From: Cytophagales bacterium Alg240-R148
GTDB lineage: Bacteria > Bacteroidota > Bacteroidia > Cytophagales > Cyclobacteriaceae
NCBI GenBank assembly: GCA_900537185.1
Contig: LS999826.1
Span: 1,568,379-1,632,378 of the forward strand
DNA length: 64,000 nucleotides
Direction of reading: 5' to 3'
Shown here: piece by piece, positions 2,740 through 16,880 of the stretch
Layout: every line of letters starts with the position of its first letter
How positions within the stretch are numbered: position 1 is the stretch's first letter
Made by a program: the position numbers and the translations under genes
Notes under the pieces: generated by a model
The model's database searches: none
Seen by the model: only the letters and a program-made list of their open reading frames with translations
What the model was told of the DNA's origin: nothing

Positions 2740-2743
2740 ATCT

Positions 2744-3616
2744 CTATACTAAAACTTGCTTGATTGTTGTAAATATTTGCTTACATACATCATTAGCCAA
2801 AATCTTTTCCTGATTTAAGTAGTCAGTTTGGGCAATACAAACTGTATTGGTCATTCCCGATTTTTGTAACTGTCCTACAGTTCCGACTAATGATTTTTTA
2901 TGACTGTATTTGACTTTGTTTACTTTAAGCAATACAGTGCCACTTTCATCATAACTTAGCTTCTCTTTGAATAGATTGCAGGATGTATGAATGCTTAGGA
3001 ATTTTTCAGCTTCACCGAAAATGTCATCATTATCTTGGCGCATTAATGGAATGATAACATCTTCTAAATTCCCACTGCCTGTTTCACTTTCTTTAAAAAC
3101 ATACAAGCCTATCTTAATGTCTTCTAATAATGGGAATTGACTAAAGTCTGGTACCGGGTCGAAAGAAGCTTTTTTGAAAACTTCTTGACATTCTTCAAGA
3201 ACTTCTTTTGCCCTTTGTTCATATCCCTTATCATCTGCATCCAAGCAATAAAGTACTGAAATGGTAGTGTCAGGTAATGCCTGAATTTGATCCTGATCAG
3301 GCTCATTCAGGTCATTCAATCGCTGAAGCAATTCCTTTCTTTTTAATGATGTATCTCCACCAACTGTATAGATTATGACATAGTTGGAATCCTTAACCAT
3401 TACATATTGTGGCATAAAACGAGAACGAGCCTCTTGTATGTTAATTGAATCAACATCACTTAGGCTTAAATCTTTTAGAAAAAAATTAGCCATGTAATTT
3501 GGATACTCATTGATTTTCTTTTCTTCCCTTTTGAGACCGTTCGCTTTTAATATGCGGTACAAAAATGCTGCATCATGAGAGCCTTCTGTTAGTATGTACA
3601 ATAAATTCTGAGTCAT
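2744..3616 (-). CDS. TOPRIM-domain protein, partner of the upstream ParB-like/AAA ATPase
   Basis: A 290-residue protein with the marks of a TOPRIM fold: a glutamate in an N-terminal strand (LTEGSHD, E11), a DxD motif (LDADD, D126 and D128) and a later GNLED motif (E185), which are the metal-binding positions in TOPRIM nucleases of the DUF3226/DUF4435/OLD-like type. Its start codon shares one base with the stop codon of the ATPase gene (TAATG), so the two are almost surely made together. ATPase plus separate TOPRIM nuclease pairs are known in PARIS (AriA/AriB) and in the Rlo genes of hsd loci. The exact family is not settled by eye. Likely a DNA or RNA nuclease or effector held in check by the ATPase. 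Confidence 0.75.
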   Translation of the reverse strand: MTQNLLYILTEGSHDAAFLYRILKANGLKREEKKINEYPNYMANFFLKDLSLSDVDSINIQEARSRFMPQYVMVKDSNYVIIYTVGGDTSLKRKELLQRLNDLNEPDQDQIQALPDTTISVLYCLDADDKGYEQRAKEVLEECQEVFKKASFDPVPDFSQFPLLEDIKIGLYVFKESETGSGNLEDVIIPLMRQDNDDIFGEAEKFLSIHTSCNLFKEKLSYDESGTVLLKVNKVKYSHKKSLVGTVGQLQKSGMTNTVCIAQTDYLNQEKILANDVCKQIFTTIKQVLV

Positions 3617-5742
3617 TATCTTATATCAAAATTTATTGAATCAATTAATCTTTCTAAACGGCCTCCTTCAATATACTTGCAAGCTATTTCGCCATCTACT
3701 TCCGACAGGGCATAGGCCCTTATAAAATCATTGTGGTAATCATTCTTGACAAATGCATCAATACACTCTTTGCTATGGGTGGAAAGGAATACCTGGACAT
3801 TGAATTGCTCTGCTGTCTGTTGGATGAACTTGGTAAATTCTATCAATAAGGACTTGTGTATAGCACTATCAATCTCATCAATACATATCACACCATCTTT
3901 GCTGTAAACCATTAATAAAGCTATCTCGAACACCCTTTGTAAGCCTTCACCATATTTGGTAATATCTACCACCTCATTTATACGAGAAGAAGAAACCATA
4001 AATCTGCTTTCACCTTCATCACTAATCATCTCAATCTTTTCAATACTTGGGTCCAAATGAACTTGTATGAACTCTATTACTCTATCAAAGTATTTCTCCT
4101 TTACTGCATTTGCGTGTGCTTTTTTAAGCAACTCAGTGTTGTATCTGAACGGACTGGTAAAAGTGGCTGGACATAAAACCTGAGACTTTGAGAAACGAAG
4201 CTCCGGGGCTTTGGTGGTGTAAAGATGAATGGAACTCTCTAACGTGATGTCATTTACTTTAGCTTCTGATTCTATGGTAGAGAGGTAGCCTGACTTTTCT
4301 ATATCGTCATCAGTTTCTGTCTTTGTAAGAAACAAGCTACTCTCAGCTCCATTGAATGATCCCTCTAATTCAATGTCTGATATGAAGTTTTTGTGAATCC
4401 ATTTTGAATGAAAATCTGAGTAGAATTTCCCTCTGTATTTTTCTAAGTCCAGAAACGCATTTATATCATTCAATTGGCTTAATAGGTAAAAGCATTCCAG
4501 TATGGAAGTCTTACCCAAATTATTGCCTCCTACAAAGATGTTGACCTTAGATAGGTTCTTAACTTTGATTTTGTGTAGCTTTCTGTAGCTATGGACAAAT
4601 ATCTCATTGAAGTGATTTTCAACCGTGGTAAAATAGCTTGTTAGTCGTTTGTCATTAATGGCAACTACTGCTTTACTGGTTGGAATTAATCGGTCTAATT
4701 TGTCTTTTAGACGCTGAATTTCTCCATAATCTGGTTCTGTTAAATGCTCACTAAAATTGAATGCGATTTGTACCTCTTTGCGAAGCGTATCTAATGCATT
4801 CTTTAACCTGTTTTCACCAATTACATCACTATAAGAGTAAGCCTCTGCAATGCTGCGGCTTTCTTCCATGCGTTCTATCGCAATTGGATCGTTTAGGAAC
4901 TTGGCAATCTCTTTGATTTGCCTGTATTGACTAATAATAGGTTCTTTGGTTGAGACACGCTCATTGCCATCTTCGTCAATTTCAGTCTCTTCGGTTTGAG
5001 ATACCCAACTAAACAGTCTTTCTAAGTTTACTGCATTATTGGCTGTCATATCTTCGTTGCTCCACTCAATCCAGTTACGCATTTCCGGGCTTGAAATAAC
5101 GGTTTCAAAAATGGTGTACATTGGCGATTCAAATTGGTCGCCATAGTCGCTCTGCTTGAATTGTTGGATAAGATTTAGCGTCCTTAAACCTCTTCTTAGT
5201 TTTACTGTAGATATACCAAGAGCATCACAAACCTCTTGTTCTGTCTTACCAAATTGAGAGATTAAATCATTTATTAATTGTGATTCATTTACTGCTGGCC
5301 ATCTTTTCTTTCCATTGATGTGATGTAAACCCATAGCTACTAAATGCTGCATGGGGTCTTCATCTTCTATTAATACCAAATTGACACTTTTAAAGTCAGG
5401 TTCTGAAAGAAGACCTACATCATTGCCTTTTTTAAATTCATCAAACAGATACTTTAATGTGGCGACACGTCTATTTCCTTCGAGAACCAAGTAATTTTCA
5501 CCTACTTCGGTAACCTGTATTTGGTCAATATCCAAAAAGCCATTGGTAGAAAAGCTACTAATGAGGTCTTTTACATTACCATTGTTTTTGCCAAGGATAA
5601 AGTTCAGCGTTCTCTGCTGAACACGGGTATCTGCAACATTGGCCTGTTCTACAGGCTTGTACTCTGGCCTGTCTTTGAACCTATAATTATTAGGATCAAG
5701 TATGAGACGATCTATATGTCTGGTTATCCTTTTACTTGGCAT
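3616..5742 (-). CDS. ParB-like N-terminal domain fused to an OLD/ABC-type AAA ATPase
   Basis: A 708-residue fusion. Residues 1-130 look like a ParB/Srx-type domain (EGNRRVATLK at 88-97, the arginine-rich box of that fold), followed by a probable helix-turn-helix around 150-195 (EVCDALGISTVKLRRGL). A helical linker covers about 200-380. The ATPase begins near 385, with Walker A GGNNLGKTS (405-413), a signature-like YGEGLQR (597-603), Walker B VICIDEID (618-625) and a switch histidine in STHS (H656). This is the layout of OLD, Gabija GajA and RloA-type ATPases, but without a TOPRIM domain, which is encoded separately next door. It overlaps the end of hsdS by 11 bases. A defence sensor or regulator is the likeliest role; the ParB-like part may bind DNA or a nucleotide. 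Confidence 0.8.
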   Translation of the reverse strand: MPSKRITRHIDRLILDPNNYRFKDRPEYKPVEQANVADTRVQQRTLNFILGKNNGNVKDLISSFSTNGFLDIDQIQVTEVGENYLVLEGNRRVATLKYLFDEFKKGNDVGLLSEPDFKSVNLVLIEDEDPMQHLVAMGLHHINGKKRWPAVNESQLINDLISQFGKTEQEVCDALGISTVKLRRGLRTLNLIQQFKQSDYGDQFESPMYTIFETVISSPEMRNWIEWSNEDMTANNAVNLERLFSWVSQTEETEIDEDGNERVSTKEPIISQYRQIKEIAKFLNDPIAIERMEESRSIAEAYSYSDVIGENRLKNALDTLRKEVQIAFNFSEHLTEPDYGEIQRLKDKLDRLIPTSKAVVAINDKRLTSYFTTVENHFNEIFVHSYRKLHKIKVKNLSKVNIFVGGNNLGKTSILECFYLLSQLNDINAFLDLEKYRGKFYSDFHSKWIHKNFISDIELEGSFNGAESSLFLTKTETDDDIEKSGYLSTIESEAKVNDITLESSIHLYTTKAPELRFSKSQVLCPATFTSPFRYNTELLKKAHANAVKEKYFDRVIEFIQVHLDPSIEKIEMISDEGESRFMVSSSRINEVVDITKYGEGLQRVFEIALLMVYSKDGVICIDEIDSAIHKSLLIEFTKFIQQTAEQFNVQVFLSTHSKECIDAFVKNDYHNDFIRAYALSEVDGEIACKYIEGGRLERLIDSINFDIR

Positions 5743-7063
5743 GTTCCATTTCTTTTATAGTCTTAACCTTTAATTTGAGTTTCCCCAACACTGCTTCAGC
5801 TATCATGGCTTCCCTGTACTCTTTGATGAGTTCTATTTCTTTCTTTGCTTTAGCAATGGCCTGGTCTATTTTGGAGGTTTCGTTTTTGATGTAGTTATAA
5901 ATAATTACTTGTTCTTCTTTTGGAGGCAAAACAATTGGTAAGCTTTTCAATAAATCTTGACTCATTGAAGCACGTGTTATGATGTTCATTTCTTTTACGA
6001 AATATTCTCGCAATAATTCATTTCTGAAGTAGTATGTACTAAAACCTTCAAAAAGAAGGTTTTCTGTAGGTCTGAAACGAATTAAAAACCCTGAAAAAGT
6101 CGCATTAGGAATTGTTTCGTGGCAAGTAGAAGCAATGGCAATTTCATTCACAATTTCTGATGTTCGTGTAAAAAAAATATCTCCTTTTTTAACCGAACAG
6201 TTAGTTTGGTCTTCTTTTGAAGATTCAACTAAACCCGATGGGATTTTTGGCAAAATCTCATTGTTATATATATCACCATATCCGAAGAAGGGAAAGCCTT
6301 TTCCAAAATAATCCCCACCTTTATTTAGACCATTTTGACATTGTCCGCAGTACCTCAATTTTCTCAATTCCCAATGCTCTGGAATGTCTCCCAACCATTC
6401 AATACCGCTATCTTTTAAAGCGACATCTGGATTAATGCCTTTTGTAACAGTTTTGCTAATAACTGCATGCCTTTGCTCTTTCAATAATTCAACAAAAGCT
6501 TGCTTTTTCTGGATGAAGTGATTTATTTTTTGTGATTGGGTATTTATGTAAGTTACAATTTGGTCTTGTTCTTCTTTTGGGGGAACGGAAATCCTAATAC
6601 TGAAAAACTTATCCGAGTACAAGCGCAAGCGGCTATCTATGATCCCGAAAGATTTTTTTCTGAACTCAGCCTTCATGATAGCTGTAGAAAACAAATACCC
6701 GAAATAGTGCGGATTATTATCTCCCTTGATACGATACACACAATAGGCAGGGCTTGTAATGCCTTCAAATTTAGAAATGCCTAAACTACCATTCCAAGCC
6801 AACATGATATTGCTTACTAGATCATTTTCAGCTACTTTTTTATAGCCCACCAATGTTTTAGCATTGCTGATGAAATCATCCTCGTTTTCAAGGCTATCTC
6901 TCTTTTTGGTTACTCCAGTATAATGAGAAACGGAAAGTAATTCTTCTTCGCCTGTTTCGCTTCTTTCATCTATCTCAGCAAAGAGATTTTTGATACGCAA
7001 AGTATTCCAATGCTGCGGAACAGACGTTAACCATGTGGAAGTATTTGGTTCTTGTACCATCAT
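5732..7063 (-). CDS. hsdS: Type I restriction-modification specificity subunit
   Basis: The DNA-recognition subunit shared by the methylase and nuclease complexes. The 443 residues show two halves of the usual design. Each has a target-recognition domain (about 12-170 and 215-385) followed by a conserved helical spacer; the matching landmarks PPKEEQDQIVTYI and PPKEEQVIIYNYI end the two recognition domains. The WLTSVPQHW and WLGDIPEHW openings also repeat. The start follows the hsdM stop without any gap, and two ATG codons stand in tandem at 7063 and 7060. The end overlaps the ParB/ATPase gene by 11 bases. The recognised sequence cannot be read from the protein; the two halves imply a bipartite site. 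Confidence 0.95.
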   Translation of the reverse strand: MMVQEPNTSTWLTSVPQHWNTLRIKNLFAEIDERSETGEEELLSVSHYTGVTKKRDSLENEDDFISNAKTLVGYKKVAENDLVSNIMLAWNGSLGISKFEGITSPAYCVYRIKGDNNPHYFGYLFSTAIMKAEFRKKSFGIIDSRLRLYSDKFFSIRISVPPKEEQDQIVTYINTQSQKINHFIQKKQAFVELLKEQRHAVISKTVTKGINPDVALKDSGIEWLGDIPEHWELRKLRYCGQCQNGLNKGGDYFGKGFPFFGYGDIYNNEILPKIPSGLVESSKEDQTNCSVKKGDIFFTRTSEIVNEIAIASTCHETIPNATFSGFLIRFRPTENLLFEGFSTYYFRNELLREYFVKEMNIITRASMSQDLLKSLPIVLPPKEEQVIIYNYIKNETSKIDQAIAKAKKEIELIKEYREAMIAEAVLGKLKLKVKTIKEMEHAK

Positions 7064-8833
7064 TTACGCTTCTATAATTTCTTTTAGTAGATGCTCAGTC
7101 TCTTCCTCAATTTTGAATATATCTGCAGATATTTCTTCCAAGCTTCTAGGTGCTTTGTGCTGGTAGAAGTATTTGGCAAAATTGATTTCATAACCAATTT
7201 TGGTTTCGTTCTTTTTGTACCAGGCATCTGGTACAAAAGGGGTGACTTCTTTGGCAAAAAAGTTATCAATGTCATCTTTTAAAGGGATATTTTCCTTGTC
7301 TTTAAGGGCATTGTTACTTTTTGGTTTGCCTTTGGAATCTTTGACGATATTACCGTTTTCATCACGTTGAGGACGATGGACGGTTATCTGGCTGTAGCCA
7401 AAGTCTTCATTGTTGAGGATAATGCTATTATTGTTATTCTCAAAGTTCAAAAACAGGTCTGTAATCGTACGGATATGGTCATTGCTAAACTCTACTCTCT
7501 TTTTACCTAATGGCTTGCGCATTTTACTGTAGAACTGCTCAGAGGTAACATTGATGAGTTGTAGTTTTCCCTTTCGCTTTTCTTCCTTATTGTTGTTCAG
7601 TATAAAAATATACGTAGGTATGCCAGTATTGTAAAACAAATCATTGGGAAGGGCAATTACCGCTTCCAATAAATCATTTTCAAAAAGGTACTTGCGTATT
7701 TCCGTTTCTCCTTGACCTGCATCACCAGTAAACAATGCTGAACCATTATGGATAGTGGCTGCTCTACTGCCCAATTCACTATTGATTTTCAACTTAGAGA
7801 CAATGTTCATTACAAACAGCAATTGCCCGTCATTTACTCGGGGAACACCTACTGTAAAGCGAGGATCTATGATGTCTTTTTTATCTAGTATGGCATCTGC
7901 ATCTACTTTCCATGTTTTCCCATAAGGTGGGTTACTAATCATGAAATCGAATTGCAGATTAGGAAAGCCGTCTTTGCTTAGTGTTGAGCCGAAAGCAATC
8001 TTCTCTGGGTCTTCATCTTTTATCAGCATGTCTGCTTTACAGATGGCGTAGGTTTCGGGGTTTACTTCCTGTCCGTACAAATGGAAAGTAGCTTTGGGGT
8101 TGAGTTTTTTGGCAAAGTGTTCGGCTTCTGTTAACATCCCTCCACTACCACAAGCAGGGTCATATATCAAATACGTACCATCTTTAATCTTTCCTTTGAG
8201 GGGTTCAAAAATCAGGTGGGTCATTAAGCGAATGATTTCCCTTGGGGTAAAGTGTTCTCCGGCTTCTTCGTTATTCTCTTCGTTGAACTTGCGTATCAAC
8301 TCTTCAAACACATAGCCCATCCCTAAATTGGTCAAGCCTTCCATGACTACATTGCTGTCTTTATCTGTGACAGGCATTGGGCTTAGGTTAATTGTACTTG
8401 AGCAAAACTTTTCAATTAGTGGAAAGGTAATGTTACCTTCTTCCAAGGTCTCCAACTGGTTTCTCAATTTGAACTTACTGATGATGTCCTGCACATTGCT
8501 GCTAAAGCCATCCAGATAAGTTTCTAAGTTTTGACGGATGTTACTCGGCTCATTTAATAATCGTTTGAATGTGTAGTTTGATGTGTTGTAAAACACATAA
8601 CCGCTGGTTTTACGCAATTGAGCGGATTGGTTGTCAATCTTCATTTCGTTTAGTTTTTGGTGCATCTCCAAAACTTTGTCTTTGGTAGGCTCCAAAATGG
8701 CATCTAACCTGCGAAGTACGGTAAAGGGTAAGATTATATCTCGGTATTTTCCACGTGTGTAAACATCACGTAAAACATCATCAGCAATACTCCAGATGAA
8801 ATTAACAATAGCGTTATGTTGTACTTGATTCAT
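7064..8833 (-). CDS. hsdM: Type I restriction-modification N6-adenine methylase subunit
   Basis: Methylates adenine in the host copy of the recognition site with S-adenosylmethionine, in complex with HsdS. The 589 residues carry an N-terminal HsdM helical domain (about 1-160), then the methylase core with FTPREI (195-200), the SAM-binding motif DPACGSGGML (225-234) and the catalytic NPPYG (301-305). Length and motif order match the N6_Mtase family. It starts 2 bases after the XRE regulator stop and ends where hsdS begins, so regulator, methylase and specificity subunit form one tight operon. Confidence 0.96.
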   Translation of the reverse strand: MNQVQHNAIVNFIWSIADDVLRDVYTRGKYRDIILPFTVLRRLDAILEPTKDKVLEMHQKLNEMKIDNQSAQLRKTSGYVFYNTSNYTFKRLLNEPSNIRQNLETYLDGFSSNVQDIISKFKLRNQLETLEEGNITFPLIEKFCSSTINLSPMPVTDKDSNVVMEGLTNLGMGYVFEELIRKFNEENNEEAGEHFTPREIIRLMTHLIFEPLKGKIKDGTYLIYDPACGSGGMLTEAEHFAKKLNPKATFHLYGQEVNPETYAICKADMLIKDEDPEKIAFGSTLSKDGFPNLQFDFMISNPPYGKTWKVDADAILDKKDIIDPRFTVGVPRVNDGQLLFVMNIVSKLKINSELGSRAATIHNGSALFTGDAGQGETEIRKYLFENDLLEAVIALPNDLFYNTGIPTYIFILNNNKEEKRKGKLQLINVTSEQFYSKMRKPLGKKRVEFSNDHIRTITDLFLNFENNNNSIILNNEDFGYSQITVHRPQRDENGNIVKDSKGKPKSNNALKDKENIPLKDDIDNFFAKEVTPFVPDAWYKKNETKIGYEINFAKYFYQHKAPRSLEEISADIFKIEEETEHLLKEIIEA

Positions 8834-8835
8834 TC

Positions 8836-9129
8836 TTATTTGGTGTTTGCTTGGTTTATATCATGTTGAGCAATTTTTAAGGCTTGCAATGCCTGTGCTT
8901 CATTTTCGACCAGTTGATAAACTTGCTCTGCTAACCAAATAGTTAAAAGTTCCTCTTCATCGGTGTTTAGTAATTGAGCCAATTTCAAAACCTGTTCACG
9001 TTTAGCACGTCTGTCGCCTCTCTCAATCTTGCTAAACATAGGTGTGTCAATTTCTAGACTTGCTGCTAACTGCCGTTGCAGAAGTCCCTGGCTTTCTCTT
9101 AGCTCTTTTATCCGTTCACCAAATTGCAT
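8836..9129 (-). CDS. XRE-family HTH regulator of the restriction-modification operon
   Basis: A 97-residue protein with a helix-turn-helix at about 16-45 (LQRQLAASLEIDTPMFSKIERG), the classical Cro/C1-type fold. It is first in the hsd operon and 2 bases from hsdM, so it most likely controls the operon, in the way of controller proteins of other restriction systems. Two direct repeats (TGACCTGTTA and TGACTTGTCA, 15 bases apart at 9129 and 9144) lie over its start codon and just upstream and may be its operator. The C-terminal part (about 65-97) is helical and could help dimerise. No toxin partner is seen, so a toxin-antitoxin role is unlikely. Confidence 0.85.
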   Translation of the reverse strand: MQFGERIKELRESQGLLQRQLAASLEIDTPMFSKIERGDRRAKREQVLKLAQLLNTDEEELLTIWLAEQVYQLVENEAQALQALKIAQHDINQANTK

Positions 9130-9153
9130 GACCTGTTATTTTATGACTTGTCA
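9129..9153. promoter_or_regulatory. Paired repeats over the XRE gene start (candidate operator)
   Basis: TGACCTGTTA (9129-9138) and TGACTTGTCA (9144-9153) match at 8 of 10 positions and are set 15 bases apart. The second is a perfect palindrome of TGAC arms around TT. The first overlaps the start codon, so binding would block expression, as with controller-protein boxes. Confidence 0.45.
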
Positions 9154-9236
9154 ATATTTGGCTAATATAAGAAAATAAAAGGTTAGAAAGAGAAAATAAA
9201 GCCATTAAGTATGACTCAGGATTTTAAGGAAATGGA

Positions 9237-9267
9237 GGATACCAAGGATTAATTTTCCTTAGTATCC
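9237..9267 (-). terminator. Stem-loop at the end of the DUF3987 gene
   Basis: GGATACCAAGGA and TCCTTAGTATCC form a 12-pair stem with one G-U pair and a 7-base loop, overlapping the last codons and stop of the replication-type gene. There is no clear T run after it, so it could slow or end transcription between the backbone genes and the hsd operon, or stabilise the upstream mRNA. Confidence 0.4.
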
Positions 9268-11066
9268 TTAACATCCTCATTTTCCTCAATCGAGGTGTTT
9301 AGGTAGTTGTCCTGCGACTCACGATGAATCAGTCCTGATTTACAGAAGTCAGTGATATAGCCCTCTGCCGTTTTGTGAGGAATGCTCAAAGCTGCTGCCA
9401 CTTCAAGGTACTTTTGACGGTTGAAGTGTTTGGGTAGCTTATTCAAGAATTTCTCTTTCCTATTTAATCGAGTAGGTTTCTGAATGTCCTCTGGAAGTTC
9501 TCCAAATACTTTACTGGAATGCTTTACCAATACTTTTACCATTGCAAGCGAAGCTTGAAAGTCTCTTTCTTCACAAATCATCTTTGATGATGTTTCACCT
9601 GTTTCCATGATCCGCAAAGCGGAGAATATCATACAGAAACGATAGGCAATCAATCCTAATCTTCGGATGGTTGCCATATAGTCGATTCCCTGAATACTCA
9701 TGTACTTCTCTTGTATCTGACCAAAGAACTGATTGAATTGGTCTTGCTGGTCAGCGGTGAGAAAGAATTGAACATCCTGTCCAGCTTTCAACGAACTGTA
9801 AAGGCTAAAGAACTCATTACCTAACGCATCAAAATAGTCGTCTAATCCATTGGTAGTTTGCGAAGCAAATACATTCTTCCACACTGGCCGAACATTCATG
9901 TAATAGAATATGAAACGGCTGAATAAGCCGTTTTCTGCATTCGGGATTAATGCCGCTACTTGCTTGGGTGTACCTGACAAAACAGTAGAAAGGCAGGGGC
10001 TTTCAATGTCCACATATTCACGGTCTGTCCTGCGATAGTAGGAAATAGTCTCATGATGAAAGGCTTTTCTAAAGCCGTCACTATAGTTGCCGTAATCGCT
10101 CTTAAAAGCATGTGCAAGTGTGTCCCCCTCAGTTTCAAATATCAGTCCTTTACCATCACTATCACCCAATAATTGATAAGCTCCTGTGGAGCTATTATTG
10201 GCTGGGATAAAGAGCATCTTTTCGGGTGGCTTCTCGGGTTTCTCTATTCCTTCAACTTTTCCTTTGTTGGCGTTGTATTCAGCCAATTCAAGTTCGTAAT
10301 GTTGCTTGTGGAGTTTTGCTTGTTCCCGAAACTCTTTGTGTACTGGATTCACTAATTGGCGACAATGCACCAAACGACCTTTACCTGCGGATGCCTGGGC
10401 AGTAATGAACAGAAACAGGTTGGAATAGACACGCTTGCCGTCATAGATGCCTGACACTTTGGGTAAACAGGCACTAATAGCCACTAAGGAGCCAAGGAGT
10501 AGAATATCCCTTTCCTCATTGGAAGTGGCTATCTGTATTACCTTTTGCAAAAACTCAGGAAGTTCAGGAAACAAGGAATCAGGAAAGGTTGGCATTTGTT
10601 CCGGTTCTTTCTTGATTTCTGCCTCAGTATTGAGATTCTTGCTTTGATTCTCAGACCTGCTTGCAGGGCTGTAAGTCTGTCTTTCCTGCTTTGGTGTAGT
10701 CAATGGTATTCCTGCTTCCTTGGCATGATAGAAGAAGGTTTTCAGGGAAACTCCCTGACCTCTTGCCTTCATGCAATTATCAAACTGCTTGTCACATTCC
10801 TGTGTGGAATACTCAGGATGATATTGACTAACACGGTGAAACAGGTTTCTACCTGTCTCACCAAACTCGTCTGCAAAGGCAAAGCCTATGTTTACCCAAT
10901 CGCTGTAAGCGGAGGTGACATCTATGTGGCTGGCCTCAATGCCTTGAATGATTCGTTCAACTTCTTCGAGTTGTGTATTTGTAGTGTAATTGCTCTGCTC
11001 TGTAACTTTTACTTGTTGGTCAGGCTTGTCAAGCCATTCCAACGGATTGAATGTTTTTCGCTCCAT
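9249..11066 (-). CDS. PriCT-2 / DUF3987 mobile-element replication protein
   Basis: A 605-residue protein of a kind found on many Bacteroidota integrative elements. Residues about 35-120 look like a primase C-terminal type 2 domain (IQGIEASHIDVTSAYSDWVNIG). From about 160 onwards it matches the DUF3987 layout, a helicase-like ATPase region with a loop TAQASAGKGRL (222-232) at the place of a Walker A motif. The upstream gene begins its reading 3 bases before and carries the VirE-N-type part; together they resemble the two halves of a primase-helicase. The C-terminal about 90 residues look like a winged-helix tail. Role in element replication is inferred from family context only. Confidence 0.7.
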   Translation of the reverse strand: MERKTFNPLEWLDKPDQQVKVTEQSNYTTNTQLEEVERIIQGIEASHIDVTSAYSDWVNIGFAFADEFGETGRNLFHRVSQYHPEYSTQECDKQFDNCMKARGQGVSLKTFFYHAKEAGIPLTTPKQERQTYSPASRSENQSKNLNTEAEIKKEPEQMPTFPDSLFPELPEFLQKVIQIATSNEERDILLLGSLVAISACLPKVSGIYDGKRVYSNLFLFITAQASAGKGRLVHCRQLVNPVHKEFREQAKLHKQHYELELAEYNANKGKVEGIEKPEKPPEKMLFIPANNSSTGAYQLLGDSDGKGLIFETEGDTLAHAFKSDYGNYSDGFRKAFHHETISYYRRTDREYVDIESPCLSTVLSGTPKQVAALIPNAENGLFSRFIFYYMNVRPVWKNVFASQTTNGLDDYFDALGNEFFSLYSSLKAGQDVQFFLTADQQDQFNQFFGQIQEKYMSIQGIDYMATIRRLGLIAYRFCMIFSALRIMETGETSSKMICEERDFQASLAMVKVLVKHSSKVFGELPEDIQKPTRLNRKEKFLNKLPKHFNRQKYLEVAAALSIPHKTAEGYITDFCKSGLIHRESQDNYLNTSIEENEDVKDTKEN

Positions 11067-11069
11067 AAC

Positions 11070-11990
11070 CTATATGTATTTAGGGTTGATGAATATGTCT
11101 GTATCGTGTGGAAGGAAACATGCTCTTGAAATGTCCTTTCCTGATTGGTCTACTTCAATCTGGTAGGTGTGGGAAACGTAGTTTGCCACTGCCTTGAAAT
11201 AGACCTGATGTTTTGCCTCCGTCAAGTCTATTGGTATTACCCATTTTAACCCATCACCTGAAGGAGATACAAACAGTAGCTCCGTTTCAAAATAATGGTC
11301 ATTGAGTAATGATTGCTTGAGCTTTGGGATGTCCTCAATGTGGTCAAAATCGATTGTAAGCAAACCTGAATGTCTTTGGAGGTTTCCATCATTCCGCTTA
11401 GAGAATGAGCCGGAGAAGGTCACATAATCGAAGTTTTGAGCCTTGTACTTTCGGGCATCCTTTGGCTCTGAGATGTTGCGAAGTGTACTTGTACACGAAG
11501 CAAAATCATTGCCTTTGATGAGGTGGTACACCTCAATCAAAGAGACTTGGCGACTTGGCTTCACATTGGATACAGGCTTTTTGAAATAGCTAAAAACTGG
11601 CGGTGTAGGCTTTTGTATTTCAGGAATAGCAACCGCAGGTTGCGTTTCCTCTTGATGATAAAAACCTCTTTCCTTTCCAATTCTCAGGTATAGTTCTTCA
11701 TTGATCTTTTCAAGAAGGGCTTGCCCTTCGAGGCTGAAATGCAATGAAGCAAAATCAAAGACATTGCCTTGTGCAATGGCTTCTTCCGTATCGGTATGCG
11801 TAGCGATACCGTCAACTACTTTTACCATCAATGTGGGCTTGTCCGCATTGAATGGATTCTTAGCAGGTTTGCAGTCCCGTCCCGAAAGGGATAGGACTGT
11901 TTCACCCTGATAGTAGTGGCGTAACACATGGGCATAGATATTCAAGCCGTAATGTGTCTTTCTCAAAATGGCTTCTCTACTGATCTCCAT
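11070..11990 (-). CDS. VirE-N / BT4734-like protein of mobile islands
   Basis: A 306-residue protein when started at the ATG at 11990; an upstream in-frame ATG at 12095 would run far into the preceding HTH gene and is less likely. The second half (about 145-300) has the BT4734/VirE-N pattern with TFSGSFSKRN, LLTIDFDHI and FVSPSGDGLKWVIPID, which resembles an archaeo-eukaryotic-type primase core with the acidic pair in DFD. The first part holds a short CHC2-like or linker region. It lies 3 bases upstream of the DUF3987 gene and probably works with it in replication of the island. Confidence 0.7.
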   Translation of the reverse strand: MEISREAILRKTHYGLNIYAHVLRHYYQGETVLSLSGRDCKPAKNPFNADKPTLMVKVVDGIATHTDTEEAIAQGNVFDFASLHFSLEGQALLEKINEELYLRIGKERGFYHQEETQPAVAIPEIQKPTPPVFSYFKKPVSNVKPSRQVSLIEVYHLIKGNDFASCTSTLRNISEPKDARKYKAQNFDYVTFSGSFSKRNDGNLQRHSGLLTIDFDHIEDIPKLKQSLLNDHYFETELLFVSPSGDGLKWVIPIDLTEAKHQVYFKAVANYVSHTYQIEVDQSGKDISRACFLPHDTDIFINPKYI

Positions 11991-12273
11991 AATGCTTTGA
12001 TTTTGAAGGTGAGTAGTTGGATTCCAGTAAAGCTTCCATATCAGAAACTTTGTAATAGAACTTGCCATTGATTCGGCTGTAGGGAAGAACCCCACTATCC
12101 CGAAGGGATTGAAGGGTTCTTTTGCTAATATGCAGCGTTTGCATCACTACCTGTCCGTCAATCCATTCATCACTGAATTGCTCCAATCGTGACTTATGGA
12201 AATTGAGGAGGTAGGCTTTGATTGTTTTGATGTCCTGTGCAAGTGTCAGGAGCATATCGAATACCTCTGTCAT
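11977..12273 (-). CDS. Small helix-turn-helix protein, excisionase-like
   Basis: A 98-residue protein started at the ATG at 12273, which overlaps the stop of the upstream HTH gene as ATGA. A longer reading to 12477 only covers that gene in another frame. A MerR/excisionase-type helix-turn-helix lies around 48-85 (VMQTLHISKRTLQSLRDSG), with the usual SRINGKFYYKVSDMEALL end. Such DNA-binding proteins steer excision or transcription of the element. It overlaps the next gene by 14 bases. Confidence 0.75.
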   Translation of the reverse strand: MTEVFDMLLTLAQDIKTIKAYLLNFHKSRLEQFSDEWIDGQVVMQTLHISKRTLQSLRDSGVLPYSRINGKFYYKVSDMEALLESNYSPSKSKHYGDQ

Positions 12274-12569
12274 AGCTTTACCCTCCCTTTCTTGATTAGG
12301 TAATCCGCAGCTCTGCGGTCTATTTCTTCCTGAGTAGAATTGCGGTTGCGAAGCAACCAGCTTTCTAACTCCGTTCTCTTGAAATAGAGCTTCTTTCCGT
12401 TTGGCTTGTAGTGTGGAATATTGCCTCCACTTGTCAACTTGTACAAGTGTGACTGTGAAAGCTCCAAGTACTGGCAAGCCTCATTGAAGTTTAAAACTTC
12501 TTTCGTGTAAATCCCCTGGCTCTCAATTAGGCGTTGGAGATTTTCAAGACGTTCAATTATTTCGTCCAT
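12270..12569 (-). CDS. Helix-turn-helix excisionase-family protein
   Basis: A 99-residue protein with a MerR-like helix-turn-helix around 26-72 (LNFNEACQYLELSQSHLYKL, then KPNGKKLYFKRTELESWL), the pattern of HTH_17 excisionase proteins in Bacteroidota islands. It is the first gene of the HTH-HTH-VirE-DUF3987 unit and overlaps the next by 4 bases. It may regulate that unit or aid excision. Its own promoter would lie in 12570-12800. Confidence 0.8.
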   Translation of the reverse strand: MDEIIERLENLQRLIESQGIYTKEVLNFNEACQYLELSQSHLYKLTSGGNIPHYKPNGKKLYFKRTELESWLLRNRNSTQEEIDRRAADYLIKKGRVKL

Positions 12570-12800
12570 CTTAAATCGTATTAAGAATTAATGAATGGAC
12601 TCTTGGCCAAAAGTCATATCCGATTGTCGAATACGATGCTAAAGTATGAGGCTAAAAGGGGCGTTATGAGGCTCTAAAGCATGGTGCAGTGTAGAGTGCA
12701 GAGTGCAGAGTGGGCTGTAAAAATTGATAGACCACTTTTAAGGAAAAAGAGGACTAAACAAAAACAGAAAAAAGATAAAAGGAGTATAGTGCAGAGTGGC
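12570..12800. other. Intergenic stretch with short GCAGAGTG repeats
   Basis: No coding signal. It holds iterated copies of GTGCAGAGTG-like units near 12680-12712 and one more near 12788-12798. It must contain the promoter of the HTH-VirE-DUF3987 unit, but no convincing TAnnTTTG element was picked out. Confidence 0.4.
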
Positions 12801-13817
12801 TTATTTCAGCAGTTCAACAATCTTATCAATTTTATCACCCGTTGAAGCAGGTCGCTTCTGAGACCTAAATTTTGATCTATCAAATGGATTGCCGTTTGAG
12901 TCGATAAAACATAGGCAAGTAACTTCCCAGTTCTGTTGTTTTAGGTATTCTACCAGTTTCAGATCATTGTGCAGGAGCTTAATGAAATAGAATAGTTCAC
13001 TGATATTCCCCGTCCATTCAATAGGTGTTTTGATTTCACCTCCTGAGAACACCTTTTTGAAATTAAGTTGCGTGGTGGATTTGCTAATGAAATGATTGAG
13101 CTTTAGGCTATCCCATAAATCGATCAATTTATCTGGGTTGGTGTTTAACTGCTTGTAGGTAAATGAATGAAATGAATTTGCCGCTGCTGCGGTTTCTGTT
13201 TTGGCTGCTGGTAATGGTTTGGATTCAACTTCAATTACTTGAACTGGTTTCAAGAAATGTTTGTCCGGGACAGGTTCTAAAAGTAGTTGGCTGTAAAAGT
13301 CCTCCAGTATGAATTGATCTTCTATCCAAGTGCTGAAAGCATTTTGGATTTCTAAGTAAAGCTGCATGTATGCAAGCTTTAGAAGCTGTAAGATGAATGT
13401 GTTTGCCTTGTGAGTTTGGTCTAATTCAAAGGATGTTTTTTTAGGATCTATGTACGTCAGTGCATAGTCCTTTTCTTTAATGAGCTTACCAAGGTCTTTT
13501 AAACGTGTTTTAATCCGCTTGTTAAGTGTGTCTTCAAGCCAATACTTGATTAAGTTTTCGTTGTTGTCCTCCTTGATCAGCTCGACAAGCCTGACACATT
13601 CTGATTTGACATTATTCAATATTAGTTTGGAATAGTACTTTGTTTTGTGATCGAATGGCCTGTGAAAGCTGATTTCATATTTGAATTGAAAATCTGTGGA
13701 GGCTTCCTTTACGCTACTGAGTTTGGAAGCATACTTTTGATCAAGGCTGTTTTTTCCTAACCAAGGGCGAAGCTCTTGGTACAGGATGTCGTCAAGTAAT
13801 TTGGTTTGATTGCTCAT
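12801..13817 (-). CDS. RteC-like protein next to the integrase
   Basis: A 338-residue soluble protein. The C-terminal part (IEWTGNISELFYFIKLLH) resembles the WTG-x-x-x-x-L segment near the end of RteC, the regulator of excision in Bacteroides conjugative transposons, and the final FDRSKFRSQKRP fits that end too. The N-terminal 200 residues are charged and helical and are not recognised. It overlaps the integrase gene by 4 bases (ATGA), so it is co-expressed with the recombination genes. The family assignment is tentative; it may simply be an uncharacterised island protein. Confidence 0.5.
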   Translation of the reverse strand: MSNQTKLLDDILYQELRPWLGKNSLDQKYASKLSSVKEASTDFQFKYEISFHRPFDHKTKYYSKLILNNVKSECVRLVELIKEDNNENLIKYWLEDTLNKRIKTRLKDLGKLIKEKDYALTYIDPKKTSFELDQTHKANTFILQLLKLAYMQLYLEIQNAFSTWIEDQFILEDFYSQLLLEPVPDKHFLKPVQVIEVESKPLPAAKTETAAAANSFHSFTYKQLNTNPDKLIDLWDSLKLNHFISKSTTQLNFKKVFSGGEIKTPIEWTGNISELFYFIKLLHNDLKLVEYLKQQNWEVTCLCFIDSNGNPFDRSKFRSQKRPASTGDKIDKIVELLK

Positions 13818-14908
13818 AGGTCAAGTTTGATTTTGTTGGCTGCTTCCTGTTTCTTTTCATCTATGATTTTGGCATAGACTTGGGTGGTCTTCAATTCCTT
13901 ATGGCCTAAGAGCTTTGAGACTGTGTAAATATCAGTTCCTGCCGTAAGCTGCAAAGTGGCATAGGTATGACGGGCACAATGGAAAGTGATGGTTTTGGAG
14001 ATACCAGCTTTCATCATCCATTGTTGCAATTTCAGGTTATGCCATGCAGAGTATTTCAATCCTTTGAATACTCGCTCTTCTGGAGCTTGCCTTTCACCGA
14101 GCAAGCCAAAGGCTTGTTCTGAAATAGGGAGGGTTTCTGCTCCCTTGGTTTTCTTTTGTCTGAATCGGATGTAATACCCGTTATCATTTGAGTGCTGCAC
14201 CTCTGACCAGAGTAGCTTATTAATGTCTGACCACCGCAAACCAGTAAGGCATGAAAATATGAATGCCGTTTTCATCTGAGGTATTTCACATTCCGTATTG
14301 GCTGCTGCTTGCAGTTCCTCCAAAGTCAGAAATTCTCTTTCAGGTTCACCTTGTTTAAAGGCGTCAACTCCTTCACTTGGGTTGGTAGGTAGAATACCGT
14401 CTTTCACTGCTTGCTTTAAAGCTGCTCGCAGCTTGTTAAAGTAGGAGTACTTAGAATTTTGAGATAGTTTCTGGTCACCATGTGCAATAGCCTTCTTATC
14501 AAGGTAGTATTTGAAATCCTGAATAAACTGTCGGTCAATATCTGAGAAGGATACCTCATAGGAACAGAAAGCCTTTAGATGTTTCAGCATACTTGTCCAA
14601 TTGCCGTAATTGCCTGGACTGTCTTGTCTCTGGTTGGCAAGTAGCTCAATATATGCAAGGAAGCTGCCTTTTAATTTCTCATTGTCTCGGAATCCATAAA
14701 CACCGTTTTGGATTTCGATTTGTCGCTGTGCTCTAATAGTCTCGGCTAATTGGAGTGTCTTTTTATTGACTTCCTTTTCCTCCTTAGTCTTTGCAATAGG
14801 AGAAAGGTATAATTTGAGGTATTCGGTTTTCCTTTTCCCTTTGTGGTAGTAGTCGAGGTATAGACTGGTCTTGCCACCTTGATTACGTTTTCTTAGTGTT
14901 ACTTTCAT
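13814..14908 (-). CDS. Tyrosine recombinase (integrase) of the island
   Basis: A 364-residue site-specific recombinase. The arm-type and SAM-like DNA-binding domains fill about 1-180. The catalytic domain shows R225 (TGLRWSD), H310-x-x-R313 (HCARHTYAT), H336 ([10 protein letters not shown]) and the nucleophile Y345 (QVYAKI), so all key residues are present. It is most like the Bacteroidota phage-integrase SAM-like group of integrative elements. It overlaps both neighbours by 4 bases. With mnmE 600 bases away and no other integrase nearby, it is the enzyme that put the island at the mnmE end. Confidence 0.93.
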
Positions 14909-15258
14909 GCCTGAAACAGTTTTTCGATTTCTTCTCTCTTGATAATGGTTCGGCTCCCAATTTTTGCAGCTTGTATTTTTCCGTTCTTTATTTGACGGTA
15001 CAGGGTCATTCTACTTGCTCCTAGTAGTTTGCAGGTTTCGGCAATACTTAGAAAGTCTTTGTCTCTGACTTGCTCCTGATTGTATTCTTGTTTCTGTACC
15101 GCAGTAGGGGCAATCTCCTGTACCTTCTGATCTCTCTTGCGTTTCTTGTAGGCACGCTTAGCACAGTTATCACCACAGAATTTGGTCACAGTAGTCTTGG
15201 CGATAAACTCAGTACCGCAATGCTGACAGATTTTGGGAACTCGAATGTTGCTGCTCAT
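14905..15258 (-). CDS. Zinc-finger plus HTH protein, probable excisionase
   Basis: Read from the ATG at 15258 it has 117 residues; an upstream in-frame ATG at 15342 is possible but would read through a pair of repeats that look regulatory. Residues 11-32 hold a zinc-binding CxxC...C...C set (C11, C14, C28, C32), as in small zinc-ribbon proteins. A MerR/excisionase-type helix-turn-helix follows near 68-115 ([20 protein letters not shown], then [15 protein letters not shown]). It is first in the recombination operon and overlaps the integrase by 4 bases. A direction factor for excision is the likely job. Confidence 0.75.
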
Positions 15259-15283
15259 GGTGTTTCCTTTTTCGGCTTGTTTC

Positions 15284-15317
15284 TGTATCAGAGTGTACCC
15301 CTTTGTATCAGGATGTA
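15284..15317. promoter_or_regulatory. Tandem 14-mer repeats upstream of the excisionase-like gene
   Basis: TGTATCAGAGTGTA (15284-15297) and TGTATCAGGATGTA (15304-15317) agree at 12 of 14 positions with a 20-base period, that is two turns of the helix. A weaker related TATGTAACA follows. Placement just before the excisionase-like start suggests binding sites for that protein. Confidence 0.45.
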
Positions 15318-15356
15318 TCTCTATGTAACATAATCTCGCCACTATCTTAAAAATCT

Positions 15357-15432
15357 GTTGCTAACAACAAATATTGAATGGTCAGCAACAAATTAGTAAC
15401 GAAAGATAGGAAAAAATAGGAAAATTAGCAAC
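15357..15432. repeat. Three AGCAAC-type sites between island and mnmE
   Basis: GTTGCT at 15357 and AGCAAC at 15384 and 15427 form one inverted and two direct copies within 76 bases of the attachment core, mostly in AGCAACAA context. Their place between integrase operon and core suits integrase arm-type sites, but the motif is short. Confidence 0.35.
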
Positions 15433-15500
15433 AAGTAAAGGAAGTATAAACAGCCTAAATGATAGTAAAAGAAGGGTTTAGCGTATCAAGGGAAATGTAA

Positions 15501-15518
15501 TTACTTCCCAATACAAAA
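15501..15518. other. Probable attachment core at the mnmE 3' end
   Basis: The last 18 bases of mnmE encode FCIGK and the stop. This segment codes for the invariant CIGK end of MnmE and is known as the target of other tyrosine-recombinase islands such as the SGI1 group. The integrase operon begins about 240 bases away with nothing else between. Confidence 0.55.
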
Positions 15519-16880
15519 CTTACTAAAGATATTCGCCAGTAAATCGTCGGTAGTAATTTCTCCAGTAATCTCTCCGAGATAATGCAAAGACTGCCTAATG
15601 TCCATGGCCAGAAAATCTCCGGTTACATTGTTAGACAAACCAATCAATACGGCCTCCAAGGCCTCCTTGGTTTTAAACAGGTTTTCGTAATGCCGTATGT
15701 TGGTCACGATGGTGCCGGAGGTATTCAGATCTCCCAAATTGGCTTTTTCCAACACCTTGTCTTTTAGCAGTTCCAAATTCAACCCTTTTTTGGCCGAAAT
15801 CAGTACAAAAGCGGCATTGGCTTCCAACTGTGTTACCAAGGCTTCATCTGCTAAGTCAATTTTATTGCCAATGGCCAAAAATGGAATGCCCTGGTTTTCT
15901 AGTTTGTTTACCTCTCTTAGAATGTCGGTAATATTGTCTTCCACGAGGTCAAACAAATAAAGGATCAAGGCAGCTTCCTTCATTTTTGCTTGGGTGCGTT
16001 CTACGCCCATGGCTTCGATGGTGTCTTGGGTCTCGCGCAAGCCGGCAGTGTCAATGAACCTGAAAATTACGCCGCCCAAGTTGAGTTCGTCCTCGATAAA
16101 ATCTCGGGTGGTGCCGGCAATGTCGGAAACGATGGCCTTTTCTTCATTGAGTAGGGCGTTCAATAGGGTAGACTTACCTGCATTGGGTTTGCCTGCAATT
16201 ACGGTAGGCACCCCGTTTTTGATTACATTGCCCAAGTCAAAGCTGTTGATGAGCACCCCTATTACTTTTTTAAGGGCATCCACCAATTGTTTTAAATCGT
16301 CCCGGTCGGCAAACTCTACATCTTCTTCGCCAAAATCCAATTCCAGTTCAATCATGGAAGCAAAATGGATGAGTTTTTCTCTTAGCTCTGATATTTCATT
16401 GGAAAACCCACCGCGCATTTGGTTGATGGCCGCTTGGTGGGAGGCATCAGAATCTGCCAATATCATGTCGGCAACGGCTTCGGCTTGTGCCAAATCAAAT
16501 TGCCCATTTAAAAAGGCCCTTTTGGTAAATTCTCCTGGCAGTGCATGGCGGGCACCAGTTCTTATCAAAAGCTGGATTACCTTTCTTGCAATGTAAGGCG
16601 AACCATGGGTGCTAATTTCTACTACATTTTCTTTGGTAAAAGACTTGGGCCCTTTAAAAATAGTAACCAAAACTTCGTCCAAGACCTGCGCGCCATCTCG
16701 AATAGTACCAAAATGAGCGGTATGTGTGGCTTGTTTGCTCAGGTCTTTTCCTTTAAAAACCTTGTTTACAATAGAGATAGCATCCAACCCCGAAATTCTA
16801 ATAACGGCAATGGCTCCTACTCCGTTGGGAGTGGCCAATGCAACTATGCTGTCGTCTATGCCCTGATGTATTCCTGCCAT
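15501..16880 (-). CDS. mnmE: tRNA uridine-5-carboxymethylaminomethyl GTPase MnmE
   Basis: With MnmG this GTPase modifies the wobble uridine (position 34) of several tRNAs. The 459 residues cover the N-terminal tetrahydrofolate-binding domain (about 1-125), a helical domain, and an inserted Ras-like G domain with GKPNAGKSTLL (P-loop, about 229-239), the DIAGTTRD switch, DTAG and NKID. The C-terminal CIGK with the catalytic cysteine is intact, so island insertion kept the gene whole. The start ATG at 16880 lies 20 bases after a TACCTTTG element (16900-16907, minus strand), which fits a Bacteroidetes promoter. Confidence 0.97.
   Translation of the reverse strand: MAGIHQGIDDSIVALATPNGVGAIAVIRISGLDAISIVNKVFKGKDLSKQATHTAHFGTIRDGAQVLDEVLVTIFKGPKSFTKENVVEISTHGSPYIARKVIQLLIRTGARHALPGEFTKRAFLNGQFDLAQAEAVADMILADSDASHQAAINQMRGGFSNEISELREKLIHFASMIELELDFGEEDVEFADRDDLKQLVDALKKVIGVLINSFDLGNVIKNGVPTVIAGKPNAGKSTLLNALLNEEKAIVSDIAGTTRDFIEDELNLGGVIFRFIDTAGLRETQDTIEAMGVERTQAKMKEAALILYLFDLVEDNITDILREVNKLENQGIPFLAIGNKIDLADEALVTQLEANAAFVLISAKKGLNLELLKDKVLEKANLGDLNTSGTIVTNIRHYENLFKTKEALEAVLIGLSNNVTGDFLAMDIRQSLHYLGEITGEITTDDLLANIFSKFCIGK

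What the first reader, a model, noticed from the sequence alone, without database searches (positions are those of the whole stretch)
15501..15518. Island probably integrated at the last 18 bases of mnmE
Seen: an integrase operon directly beside an intact mnmE 3' end. Known: the FCIGK-coding end of mnmE (also trmE/thdF) is the attachment site of SGI1-type islands in gammaproteobacteria. Inference: an unrelated Bacteroidota recombinase uses the same conserved target, a case of convergent site choice.
Basis: partly seen in the sequence, partly recalled or inferred. Interest (0 to 1): 0.6.

Follow-up and report, generated by a model that had tools for sequence, protein, structure and literature searches.

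The report
Bacterial island docked at mnmE's end
A 43-kb block of metal-resistance and phage-defence genes has been spliced in at the very end of a universal housekeeping gene (mnmE) of this Bacteroidota bacterium, by an integrase whose relatives across the phylum, some in phage-like DNA, mostly sit at this same short site, the one also used by the resistance island SGI1 of Salmonella.

Summary
Confirmed and extended. Window 15501-15518 is the last 18 nt of an intact mnmE, with a tyrosine integrase beside it. The missing left end lies 27.8 kb left of the window: a second copy of the 18-mer (17/18, same strand) at G000:C1:1540566, giving a 43.3-kb island. The 250 nt inside that copy are identical to the left end of an element in Marinoscillum furvescens; outside it nothing matches.

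Relatives of the integrase sit 3' of mnmE in 65 of 73 named loci and 64 of 68 loci examined in the window's family, own included. A second core 18-58 kb away was found in 44 of 56 genomes assessed. An unoccupied Algoriphagus has the displaced neighbour genes right after mnmE. The exchange point lies inside the 18-mer, so the element supplies the last bases of mnmE.

Not supported is "unrelated recombinase, hence convergence": a published classification puts SGI1's integrase in the IntCTnDOT subgroup with Bacteroidetes integrases; I could not obtain SGI1 Int. The site is known; I saw no description of this Bacteroidota family among the papers my searches listed.

The parts
15501..15518 (-). island/mnmE junction core (attachment site, mnmE side): last 18 nt of mnmE, TTTTGTATTGGGAAGTAA in mnmE sense
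   Evidence: partner core at G000:C1:1540566-1540583, 27.8 kb left of window base 1
15501..16880 (-). mnmE (trmE/thdF), intact target gene
   Evidence: Pfam TrmE_N, MMR_HSR1, MnmE_helical; full-length orthologues in 16 same-family genomes are 64-73% identical, one of them 58%
15343..15500 (-). right arm of the element's attachment site, between the mnmE stop and the HTH ORF; conserved between elements in different genera
15425..15433 (-). candidate arm-type integrase site TGTTGCTAA
   Evidence: 4 such motifs in 426 nt of reconstructed attP, mean 0.02 (maximum 1) in 2000 first-order Markov sequences; same offset (67 nt after the stop) in 11 of 13 relatives shown
15382..15390 (-). candidate arm-type site TGTTGCTGA
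15356..15364 (+). candidate arm-type site, inverted, TGTTGCTAA
14905..15342 (-). HTH_17 / excisionase-family protein, possible recombination directionality factor; start codon uncertain
   Evidence: Pfam HTH_17, TIGR01764 excise over cut-off, phrog_66 excisionase and regulator
13814..14908 (-). tyrosine integrase, 364 aa: Arm-DNA-bind_5 + Phage_int_SAM_5 + Phage_integrase
   Evidence: relatives at mnmE
12801..13817 (-). conserved backbone protein, 338 aa, only a sub-threshold DUF6617 match
   Evidence: 91% identical and in the same place in the M. furvescens element
12270..12569 (-). HTH_17 protein (excisionase family)
11977..12477 (-). HTH_17 protein (ORF start uncertain; overlaps the previous ORF)
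   Evidence: 166-aa ORF 100% identical in the M. furvescens element
11070..12095 (-). BT4734-like_N primase-type protein
   Evidence: NF040562 PrimPol below cut-off; phrog_18375 primase/helicase
9249..11066 (-). PriCT_2 + DUF3987 primase/helicase-type protein
8836..9129 (-). HTH_3/HTH_31 regulator
7064..8833 (-). type I methyltransferase HsdM (cargo)
5732..7063 (-). type I specificity subunit HsdS (cargo)
3616..5742 (-). AAA ATPase, PADLOC PDC-M38A (candidate defence, cargo)
2744..3616 (-). PADLOC PDC-M38B / DUF3226 (candidate defence, cargo)
1..2739 (-). type I restriction subunit HsdR, runs out of the window (984-aa ORF G000:C1:1568163-1571117)

Best explanation
Bases 1-15500 of the window are the right part of a 43.3-kb integrated island (G000:C1:1540566-1583896). 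Its IntCTnDOT-type tyrosine integrase recombined an attP, which carries its own copy of the mnmE end between integrase arm sites, with the 18-bp end of the host mnmE. Strand exchange took place inside the 18-mer, so the element supplies the last bases of mnmE including the stop, the protein still ends FCIGK, and the host's own last bases were displaced to the far junction 43 kb away. Shown by sequence: both cores, conserved inner ends against unrelated outer flanks, the family-wide link to mnmE, and an empty site in a relative of another element of the family. Inferred: that this integrase is the catalyst, that an HTH_17 protein is the excision factor, that the TGTTGCTAA repeats are arm sites, and that the PriCT_2/DUF3987 module replicates the excised circle. 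How it moves between cells is unknown: no relaxase, type IV secretion or virion domain was seen in it.
For: Second core in the own genome, same strand, 17/18. The 250 nt inside the distal core are 250/250 identical to the M. furvescens element, and no outer-flank pair among 11 elements matches. Integrase 3' of mnmE on the same strand in 65 of 73 named loci and in 64 of 68 distinct family loci examined, the window's own included, out of 76 matches (the two sets overlap). Host-like variation in mnmE before the core, element-like sequence from the stop onward. A distal core on the same strand and contig 17.6-58.2 kb away (median 32.6 kb) in 44 of 56 genomes assessed. Base patterns place the exchange between positions 3 and 15. 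Empty site: genes 278 and 1026 nt beyond the distal core of occupied Algoriphagus G236 lie 278 and 1036 nt after mnmE in unoccupied G168. Integrase 99-100% identical in Algoriphagus (L045), Cyclobacterium (L046), Marinoscillum (L047) and Marivirga (L065), whose MnmE is only 64-72% identical to this one. Of 41 viral-contig loci with enough upstream DNA, 25 carry the core 202-268 nt before the integrase, most without an mnmE match: the predicted attP.
Against: The window's own empty site could not be shown: no same-genus genome was among the relatives, the left-flank DUF5724/DUF4132 gene is absent from all 58 relatives, and that flank may be foreign too. Of three occupied Algoriphagus flanks compared, only G236 fits an empty site at the same offset; G331 is shifted by about 2.2 kb and G391 lacks the first gene. 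In 12 of 56 genomes no distal core was found on the same contig, though in seven of them the contig ends within 19 kb. L100 (70% identical, 10 kb upstream), L113 and L115 (38% and 34%) and L316, L321 (46% and 44%, 3 kb upstream) have no mnmE there. Window and M. furvescens disagree about which side owns core position 12, so the crossover is not fixed to one base. On the tree the mnmE label is scarcely more clustered than shuffled labels. No excision data.
Confidence: 0.94

Rival explanations
1. The integrase operon is a domesticated, fixed neighbour of mnmE (vertical synteny), not a mobile element, and the second core is chance.
For: Near-constant spacing integrase-mnmE over many genera (583-604 nt in 61 of the 65 adjacent named loci).
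Against: Patchy presence: 73 of 390 family genomes at E<=1e-90, own included. Integrase 99-100% identical between genera whose MnmE is 64-72% identical to the window's. Inner ends conserved while outer flanks share nothing. Empty site in Algoriphagus. Distal core in 44 of 56 genomes.
Confidence: 0.02
2. The true left end is not at 1540566: the island is larger or smaller, or a composite of several insertions at this hot spot, and the copy found is the scar of another element.
For: The left flank beyond 1540566 is itself accessory. Possible scars or tandems exist elsewhere: extra mnmE tails in G001 and G014 and a similar stretch in A. formosus, two candidate distal cores in G461 and G465. The core has one mismatch.
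Against: 250 nt inside this core are identical to the left end of the M. furvescens element, which has its own core at the same place; the left ends of the other nine elements align with these two and carry the same type of arm motif 44-68 nt from the core.
Confidence: 0.06
3. Same site as SGI1 by common descent: the SGI1-type and these Bacteroidota integrases inherited mnmE specificity from one ancestor, rather than by convergence.
For: SGI1 integrase classed in the IntCTnDOT subgroup with Bacteroidetes enzymes (PMC8138268, section 11 read). Same 18 bp, exchange inside the 18-mer, and the published SGI1-cluster attP 9-mer GGGAAGTAA (PMC9035990, passages) equals the mnmE-side end in 29 of the 44 pairs.
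Against: Not tested: no SGI1 integrase sequence could be obtained. The 9-mer is largely dictated by the G-K-stop codons. PMC7449626 (passages) reports trmE- and yicC-specific clusters in one integrase tree, so targets can switch.
Confidence: 0.35

Closest known systems
Salmonella genomic island 1 and other trmE islands (SGI1, PGI1, PGI2, AGI1, MGIVchHai6, GIPmi1) of Gammaproteobacteria
   Same: 18-bp end of mnmE/trmE as attB, tyrosine integrase, strand exchange inside the 18-mer, element-borne bases in one of the two cores, GGGAAGTAA-type attP end, resistance or phage-defence cargo (papers seen as passages)
   Different: Other phylum; no tra/mps-type gene seen among the island's ORFs; relation of the integrases not tested here
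NBU1/CTnDOT-type elements of Bacteroidetes (IntCTnDOT integrases)
   Same: Arm-DNA-bind_5/SAM_5 integrase architecture with likely arm sites, HTH excision-type proteins
   Different: NBU1 uses a Leu-tRNA gene and encodes a MobP relaxase (a reference title; passages); CTnDOT is an ICE; here the target is mnmE and no relaxase or T4SS domain was seen
Riemerella anatipestifer 10-kb island
   Same: Bacteroidota island with tyrosine integrase and direct repeats, tested in the laboratory (passages)
   Different: Arg-tRNA target, 53-bp repeat
CTnDOT-like heavy-metal islands of Mucilaginibacter
   Same: Metal-resistance cargo on integrative elements in Bacteroidota (passages)
   Different: Conjugative modules present; the paper calls precise att-site identification strongly impaired

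Membership tests
Site-specific integrative element (genomic island) | Integrase next to one boundary | tested here: met
Site-specific integrative element (genomic island) | Direct repeats of attB at both ends | tested here: met
   17/18; 44 of 56 genomes assessed
Site-specific integrative element (genomic island) | Empty site in relatives | tested here: inconclusive
   Met for the Algoriphagus element of G236 against G168; two other occupied flanks did not fit at the same offset; not shown for the window's own insertion
Site-specific integrative element (genomic island) | Excision/circular form | not testable with these tools
   No reads or wet data. Indirect: free attP-like arrangement in viral contigs without an mnmE match
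IntCTnDOT-type tyrosine integrase | Arm-binding + SAM-like core-binding + catalytic domain with the tyrosine-recombinase residues | tested here: met
   Pfam PF17293, PF13102, PF00589 over cut-offs; R225, K253, H310, R313, H336, Y345 invariant among 17 relatives, their catalytic roles being my reading. That PF17293 is the arm domain meant in PMC8138268 is my inference
SGI1-family island | Insertion at the last 18 bp of trmE with the crossover inside it | tested here: met
   SGI1 facts from passages
SGI1-family island | Shared backbone (traN/G/H, mpsA/B-type genes) | tested here: not met
   Pfam on the 37 non-overlapping island ORFs (two given incomplete: HsdR and one P-type ATPase) found no relaxase, coupling protein or T4SS domain at E<=0.001; atypical mobilisation genes could escape Pfam
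SGI1-family island | SGI1-type integrase by sequence | not tested
   No SGI1 Int sequence reachable
ICE or canonical IME | Own relaxase | tested here: not met
   As above; a relative in Bacteroides finegoldii has an annotated mobilization protein, so the wider family includes possibly mobilizable forms
Prophage | Virion genes | tested here: not met
   No phage structural Pfam domain in the scanned ORFs; nine island proteins scanned with PHROGs gave no structural family

The most novel reading that the evidence does not exclude
One ancient recombinase lineage specific for the end of mnmE spans Bacteroidota islands, mobilizable elements and gut phages and also gave rise to the SGI1-type integrases of Gammaproteobacteria: the famous resistance-island site would then be an inherited, phylum-crossing docking site, kept because the FCIGK end of MnmE can hardly change, and not a case of convergence.
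Probability: 0.3. Interest if true: 0.75.

Novelty: new variant of a known kind. Interest (0 to 1): 0.55.

Why it matters
It defines a common attachment site for mobile DNA across Bacteroidota, with exact ends, that I did not see described among the papers my searches listed. Metal-resistance and defence islands, and probably phages, in environmental and gut Bacteroidota can now be delimited by looking 3' of mnmE and for the second core. It turns 'why do SGI1-type islands use trmE' into a testable question of descent against convergence. A conserved 18-bp site at the end of a housekeeping gene, restored on insertion, is also a candidate for stable integration vectors in Bacteroidota.

Tried and rejected
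Rejected: synteny without mobility; chance repeat; the 18-mer as pure host sequence; phage nature of this island (Pfam and PHROGs). A close-relative search in viral contigs found none, while a profile search found relatives in 312 stretches, of which the best 80 (47-56% identical) were kept. Led nowhere: within-window repeat search (the 20 families shown are weak); left-flank protein in 58 relatives (none); SGI1 integrase in the E. coli genomes and plasmids collections; the pattern TTYTGYATYGGGAAGTRA in viral contigs gave one mnmE and no integrase relative in 41 loci. Monophyly of mnmE targeting is not shown: the label needs 8 changes on the tree against a shuffled mean of 9.7, 22 of 500 shuffles being as low, and six of the ten 'other' rows are long branches. 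Literature: searches (1 to 20 papers listed of 1, 24, 126, 955, 42, 374 and 6 found) listed nothing on mnmE as an attachment site in Bacteroidota; the TIGER/Islander database (paper read whole; database not seen) may contain such islands unremarked.

Full report
What is there. The window's ORF 15501-16880 (-) is MnmE and ends FCIGK-stop; 15501-15518 are its last 18 bases. On the same strand follow an HTH_17/excisionase-type ORF (14905-15342) and a 364-aa tyrosine integrase with Arm-DNA-bind_5, Phage_int_SAM_5 and Phage_integrase domains (13814-14908). ARAGORN finds no tRNA gene in the window.

The missing end. The window is G000:C1:1568379-1632378. With up to three mismatches the 18-mer has 33 places in the 5.3-Mb genome (22 for the reversed control), but only two with at most one mismatch: the mnmE end itself and C1:1540566-1540583, same strand, 43,313 bp away and 27.8 kb left of the window. 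In mnmE sense the mnmE-side copy reads TTTTGTATTGGGAAGTAA and the distal copy TTTTGTATTGGAAAGTAA.

Is the distal copy a real junction? I compared 250 nt on each side of the distal core in 11 elements. Inside, the window matches Marinoscillum furvescens 250/250 and eight others at 75-93% over 163-248 nt; the eleventh (G042) matches the identical M. furvescens end at 72% over 94 nt. Outside, no pair matches. Window and M. furvescens agree through the first 11 core positions and differ at positions 12 and 18 and beyond. This fixes the left end without knowing the window's own empty site.

Family-wide link to mnmE. A search of named genomes by six peptides of the integrase returned 73 loci with relatives. 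In 65 of 73 the end of mnmE lies 174-604 nt upstream of the integrase, same strand. Of the eight misses, five (L044, L086, L091, L110, L116) have 616 nt or less before the match, three of them starting close to where the mnmE stop would be; L100, L113 and L115 have enough DNA and no mnmE there. Among 390 genomes of the window's family (own included), 73 have a match at E<=1e-90, 76 matches in all. I examined 68 distinct matches, the window's own among them (70 loci, two seen twice; 8 matches not fetched): 64 sit 3' of mnmE on the same strand, 163-833 nt away except L317 at 1751 nt; L138 and L296 are cut by contig ends, and L316 and L321 have 3 kb upstream without mnmE. Identity ranges from 44 to 100%. 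This set overlaps the named one.

Distal cores elsewhere. In genomes of loci the distal core was sought by pattern. Of 58 genomes searched there, three (G035, G037, G039) could not be judged because one search's list was cut. With the window's genome, 44 of 56 have a distal core on the same contig and strand, 17.6-58.2 kb away, median 32.6 kb (in G461 and G465 two candidates, the nearer taken). The 12 without are G038, G032, G057, G056, G464, G457, G458, G049, G463, G446, G053 and G055; in seven of them (G032, G057, G056, G464, G457, G458, G463) the contig ends within 19 kb of the mnmE end. In one search the reversed control pattern matched 9 times in all 43 genomes together, so chance does not give 33 of 43 neighbours.

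Where strands are exchanged. Over the 44 pairs, position 2 is T in all mnmE-side copies but A in 36 of 44 distal ones; position 3 is mixed on the mnmE side (30 T, 14 C) and nearly fixed distally (43 T); positions 15 and 18 are fixed on the mnmE side (44 G, 44 A) and mixed distally (34 G/10 A; 37 A/7 G). So the left part of the mnmE-side copy is host and the right part element; the distal copy is the reverse. The exchange lies between positions 3 and 15. Positions 6, 9 and 12 vary on both sides; window and M. furvescens differ at 12 in opposite senses, as expected if 12 lies in the overlap. Caveats: the patterns used to find distal cores limit which bases can appear. G012, outside the 44, ends TAG on the mnmE side and its integrase has an internal stop. 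In more distant subclades (about 44-57% identical) the mnmE-side ends vary (TGA, TAG, AAA for AAG), so the fixed GGRAAGTAA end holds for the closer relatives only.

Empty sites. In Algoriphagus, occupied G236 has two genes 278 and 1026 nt beyond the distal core; unoccupied G168 has them 278 and 1036 nt after mnmE, G252 at 311 and 1098. In five other genomes without the integrase nearby the genes lie 1.6-9.5 kb downstream, and in one (G369) no match appeared. The other two occupied flanks fit less well: G331 (A. formosus) is shifted by about 2.2 kb, with a stretch resembling the mnmE-tail copy of G001 in between, and G391 starts with the second gene. For the window no same-genus genome was among the relatives; its left flank (DUF5724/DUF4132 protein) is absent from 58 relatives and may be foreign too.

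Mobility. Integrases 99-100% identical to the window's occur in Algoriphagus, Cyclobacterium, Marivirga and Marinoscillum (L045, L046, L065, L047), whose MnmE is only 64-72% identical to the window's. The reconstructed attP has four TGTTGCT[AGT]A motifs (mean 0.02 in 2000 Markov sequences), one left and three right of the core; the first right one is at the same offset in 11 of 13 relatives shown, and the motif occurs in the left arm of all 11 elements compared. These are candidate arm sites.

Cargo and transfer. The 37 non-overlapping island ORFs of at least 80 aa were scanned with Pfam, two of them incomplete: metal efflux (AcrB-type pump, CusB-type adaptor, OEP, two P-type ATPases, two cation diffusion facilitators, two MerT-HMA proteins), regulators, an Argonaute, a type I restriction system with an embedded PDC-M38A/B pair, PriCT_2/DUF3987 and BT4734-like replication-type proteins. 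No relaxase, type IV secretion or virion domain appeared. It therefore does not meet the ICE, canonical IME or prophage definitions; transfer by a helper, by transduction or by uptake of DNA remains open.

Wider family. A profile of 17 relatives found relatives in 312 stretches of viral contigs; the best 80 were kept. Of 41 with more than 1200 nt before the integrase, 26 carry the 18-mer upstream, 25 of them 202-268 nt away and one at 845 nt; 20 of these 26 show no mnmE match, as expected for a free attP, and 15 of 41 have no such core. Of ten proteins scanned from three such contigs, one (L388, a 47.9-kb contig) has a tail-protein match; most others have no informative match. A human-gut contig labelled phage (unverified record) has mnmE directly followed by a relative. 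In Bacteroides finegoldii the order is mnmE, HTH, integrase..., mobilization protein..., DUF3987. On a tree of 96 representatives (from 224 integrases, thinned at 85% identity; labelled 'mnmE' if the mnmE end or the core lies within 2 kb upstream), 93 form one supported branch holding all 73 mnmE-linked rows, 7 with another or undetected target and 13 undetermined; the label needs 8 changes (shuffled mean 9.7), so a single origin of mnmE targeting is not shown.

Against known systems. SGI1-type islands use the same 18 bp, with the exchange upstream of position 9 and attP ends GGGAAGTAA or GGGAAGTGA (PMC2297512, PMC9035990; passages). So it works like an SGI1-type insertion, but lacks the SGI1 backbone as far as Pfam can tell. 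Convergence against common descent needs the SGI1-type sequences, which I did not obtain. My literature searches (titles and abstract starts of the papers listed) showed no description of mnmE as an attachment site in Bacteroidota. That FCIGK is conserved because it is functionally needed is recalled, not tested.

Noticed in passing
L012:16065-18164 (G000:C1:1566064-1568163), ending just left of the window: A 699-aa prokaryotic Argonaute (PADLOC pAgo, 3.6e-293) beside a Fur-family regulator; the same pair, 94-97% identical, is in the M. furvescens element.
   Followed up: partly
window 2744-5742: A candidate defence pair PDC-M38A/B lies between hsdR and hsdS of the type I restriction system.
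   Followed up: partly
L117 (G001), L127 (G014), L129 (G016), L229 (A. formosus): Extra copies of the mnmE tail (18-mer to about 100 codons) 1.2-2.3 kb past mnmE in G001, G014 and G016, and a similar stretch beyond the distal core in A. formosus: apparently scars of other elements that carried longer replacement ends.
   Followed up: partly
L173, L176, L186, L189, L194, L197 (Algoriphagus): A second, more distant group of integrases (37-46% identical over the part seen) also 3' of mnmE in the same genus.
   Followed up: partly
L345 (Bacteroides finegoldii NZ_OY725932.1): A related integrase (45%) follows the 3' end of dnaK, with an intervening 188-aa protein: a possible other target of the same superfamily.
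   Followed up: no
L350, L371, L379, L388, L414, L423, L425, L426 (viral contigs): The mnmE-like 18-mer 202-253 nt upstream of an integrase with no mnmE match in the stretch: probable free phage or circular forms that target mnmE.
   Followed up: partly
G401:C123 (L169, L230): The contig of the nearest sister genome of A. formosus ends inside the mnmE core, as if the repeated core broke the assembly.
   Followed up: no
L099 (MAG labelled Rickettsiales bacterium): Carries a 98% identical integrase beside an mnmE 65% identical to the window's over residues 10-344; likely a Bacteroidota contig misbinned.
   Followed up: no
E. coli genomes listings: 784 of 5374 E. coli genomes with a match lack a place covering 80% of the mnmE-to-tnaC query; five of five opened have an annotated effector-type gene between mnmE and tnaC, and no integrase is annotated there.
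   Followed up: no
plasmids collection: NZ_OL790811/812 (P. mirabilis), NZ_CP064203 and NZ_CP077849 (A. baumannii), NZ_AP026896 (A. caviae): Records of 3.6-4.9 Mb that carry mnmE are filed as plasmids: probably mislabelled chromosomes.
   Followed up: no
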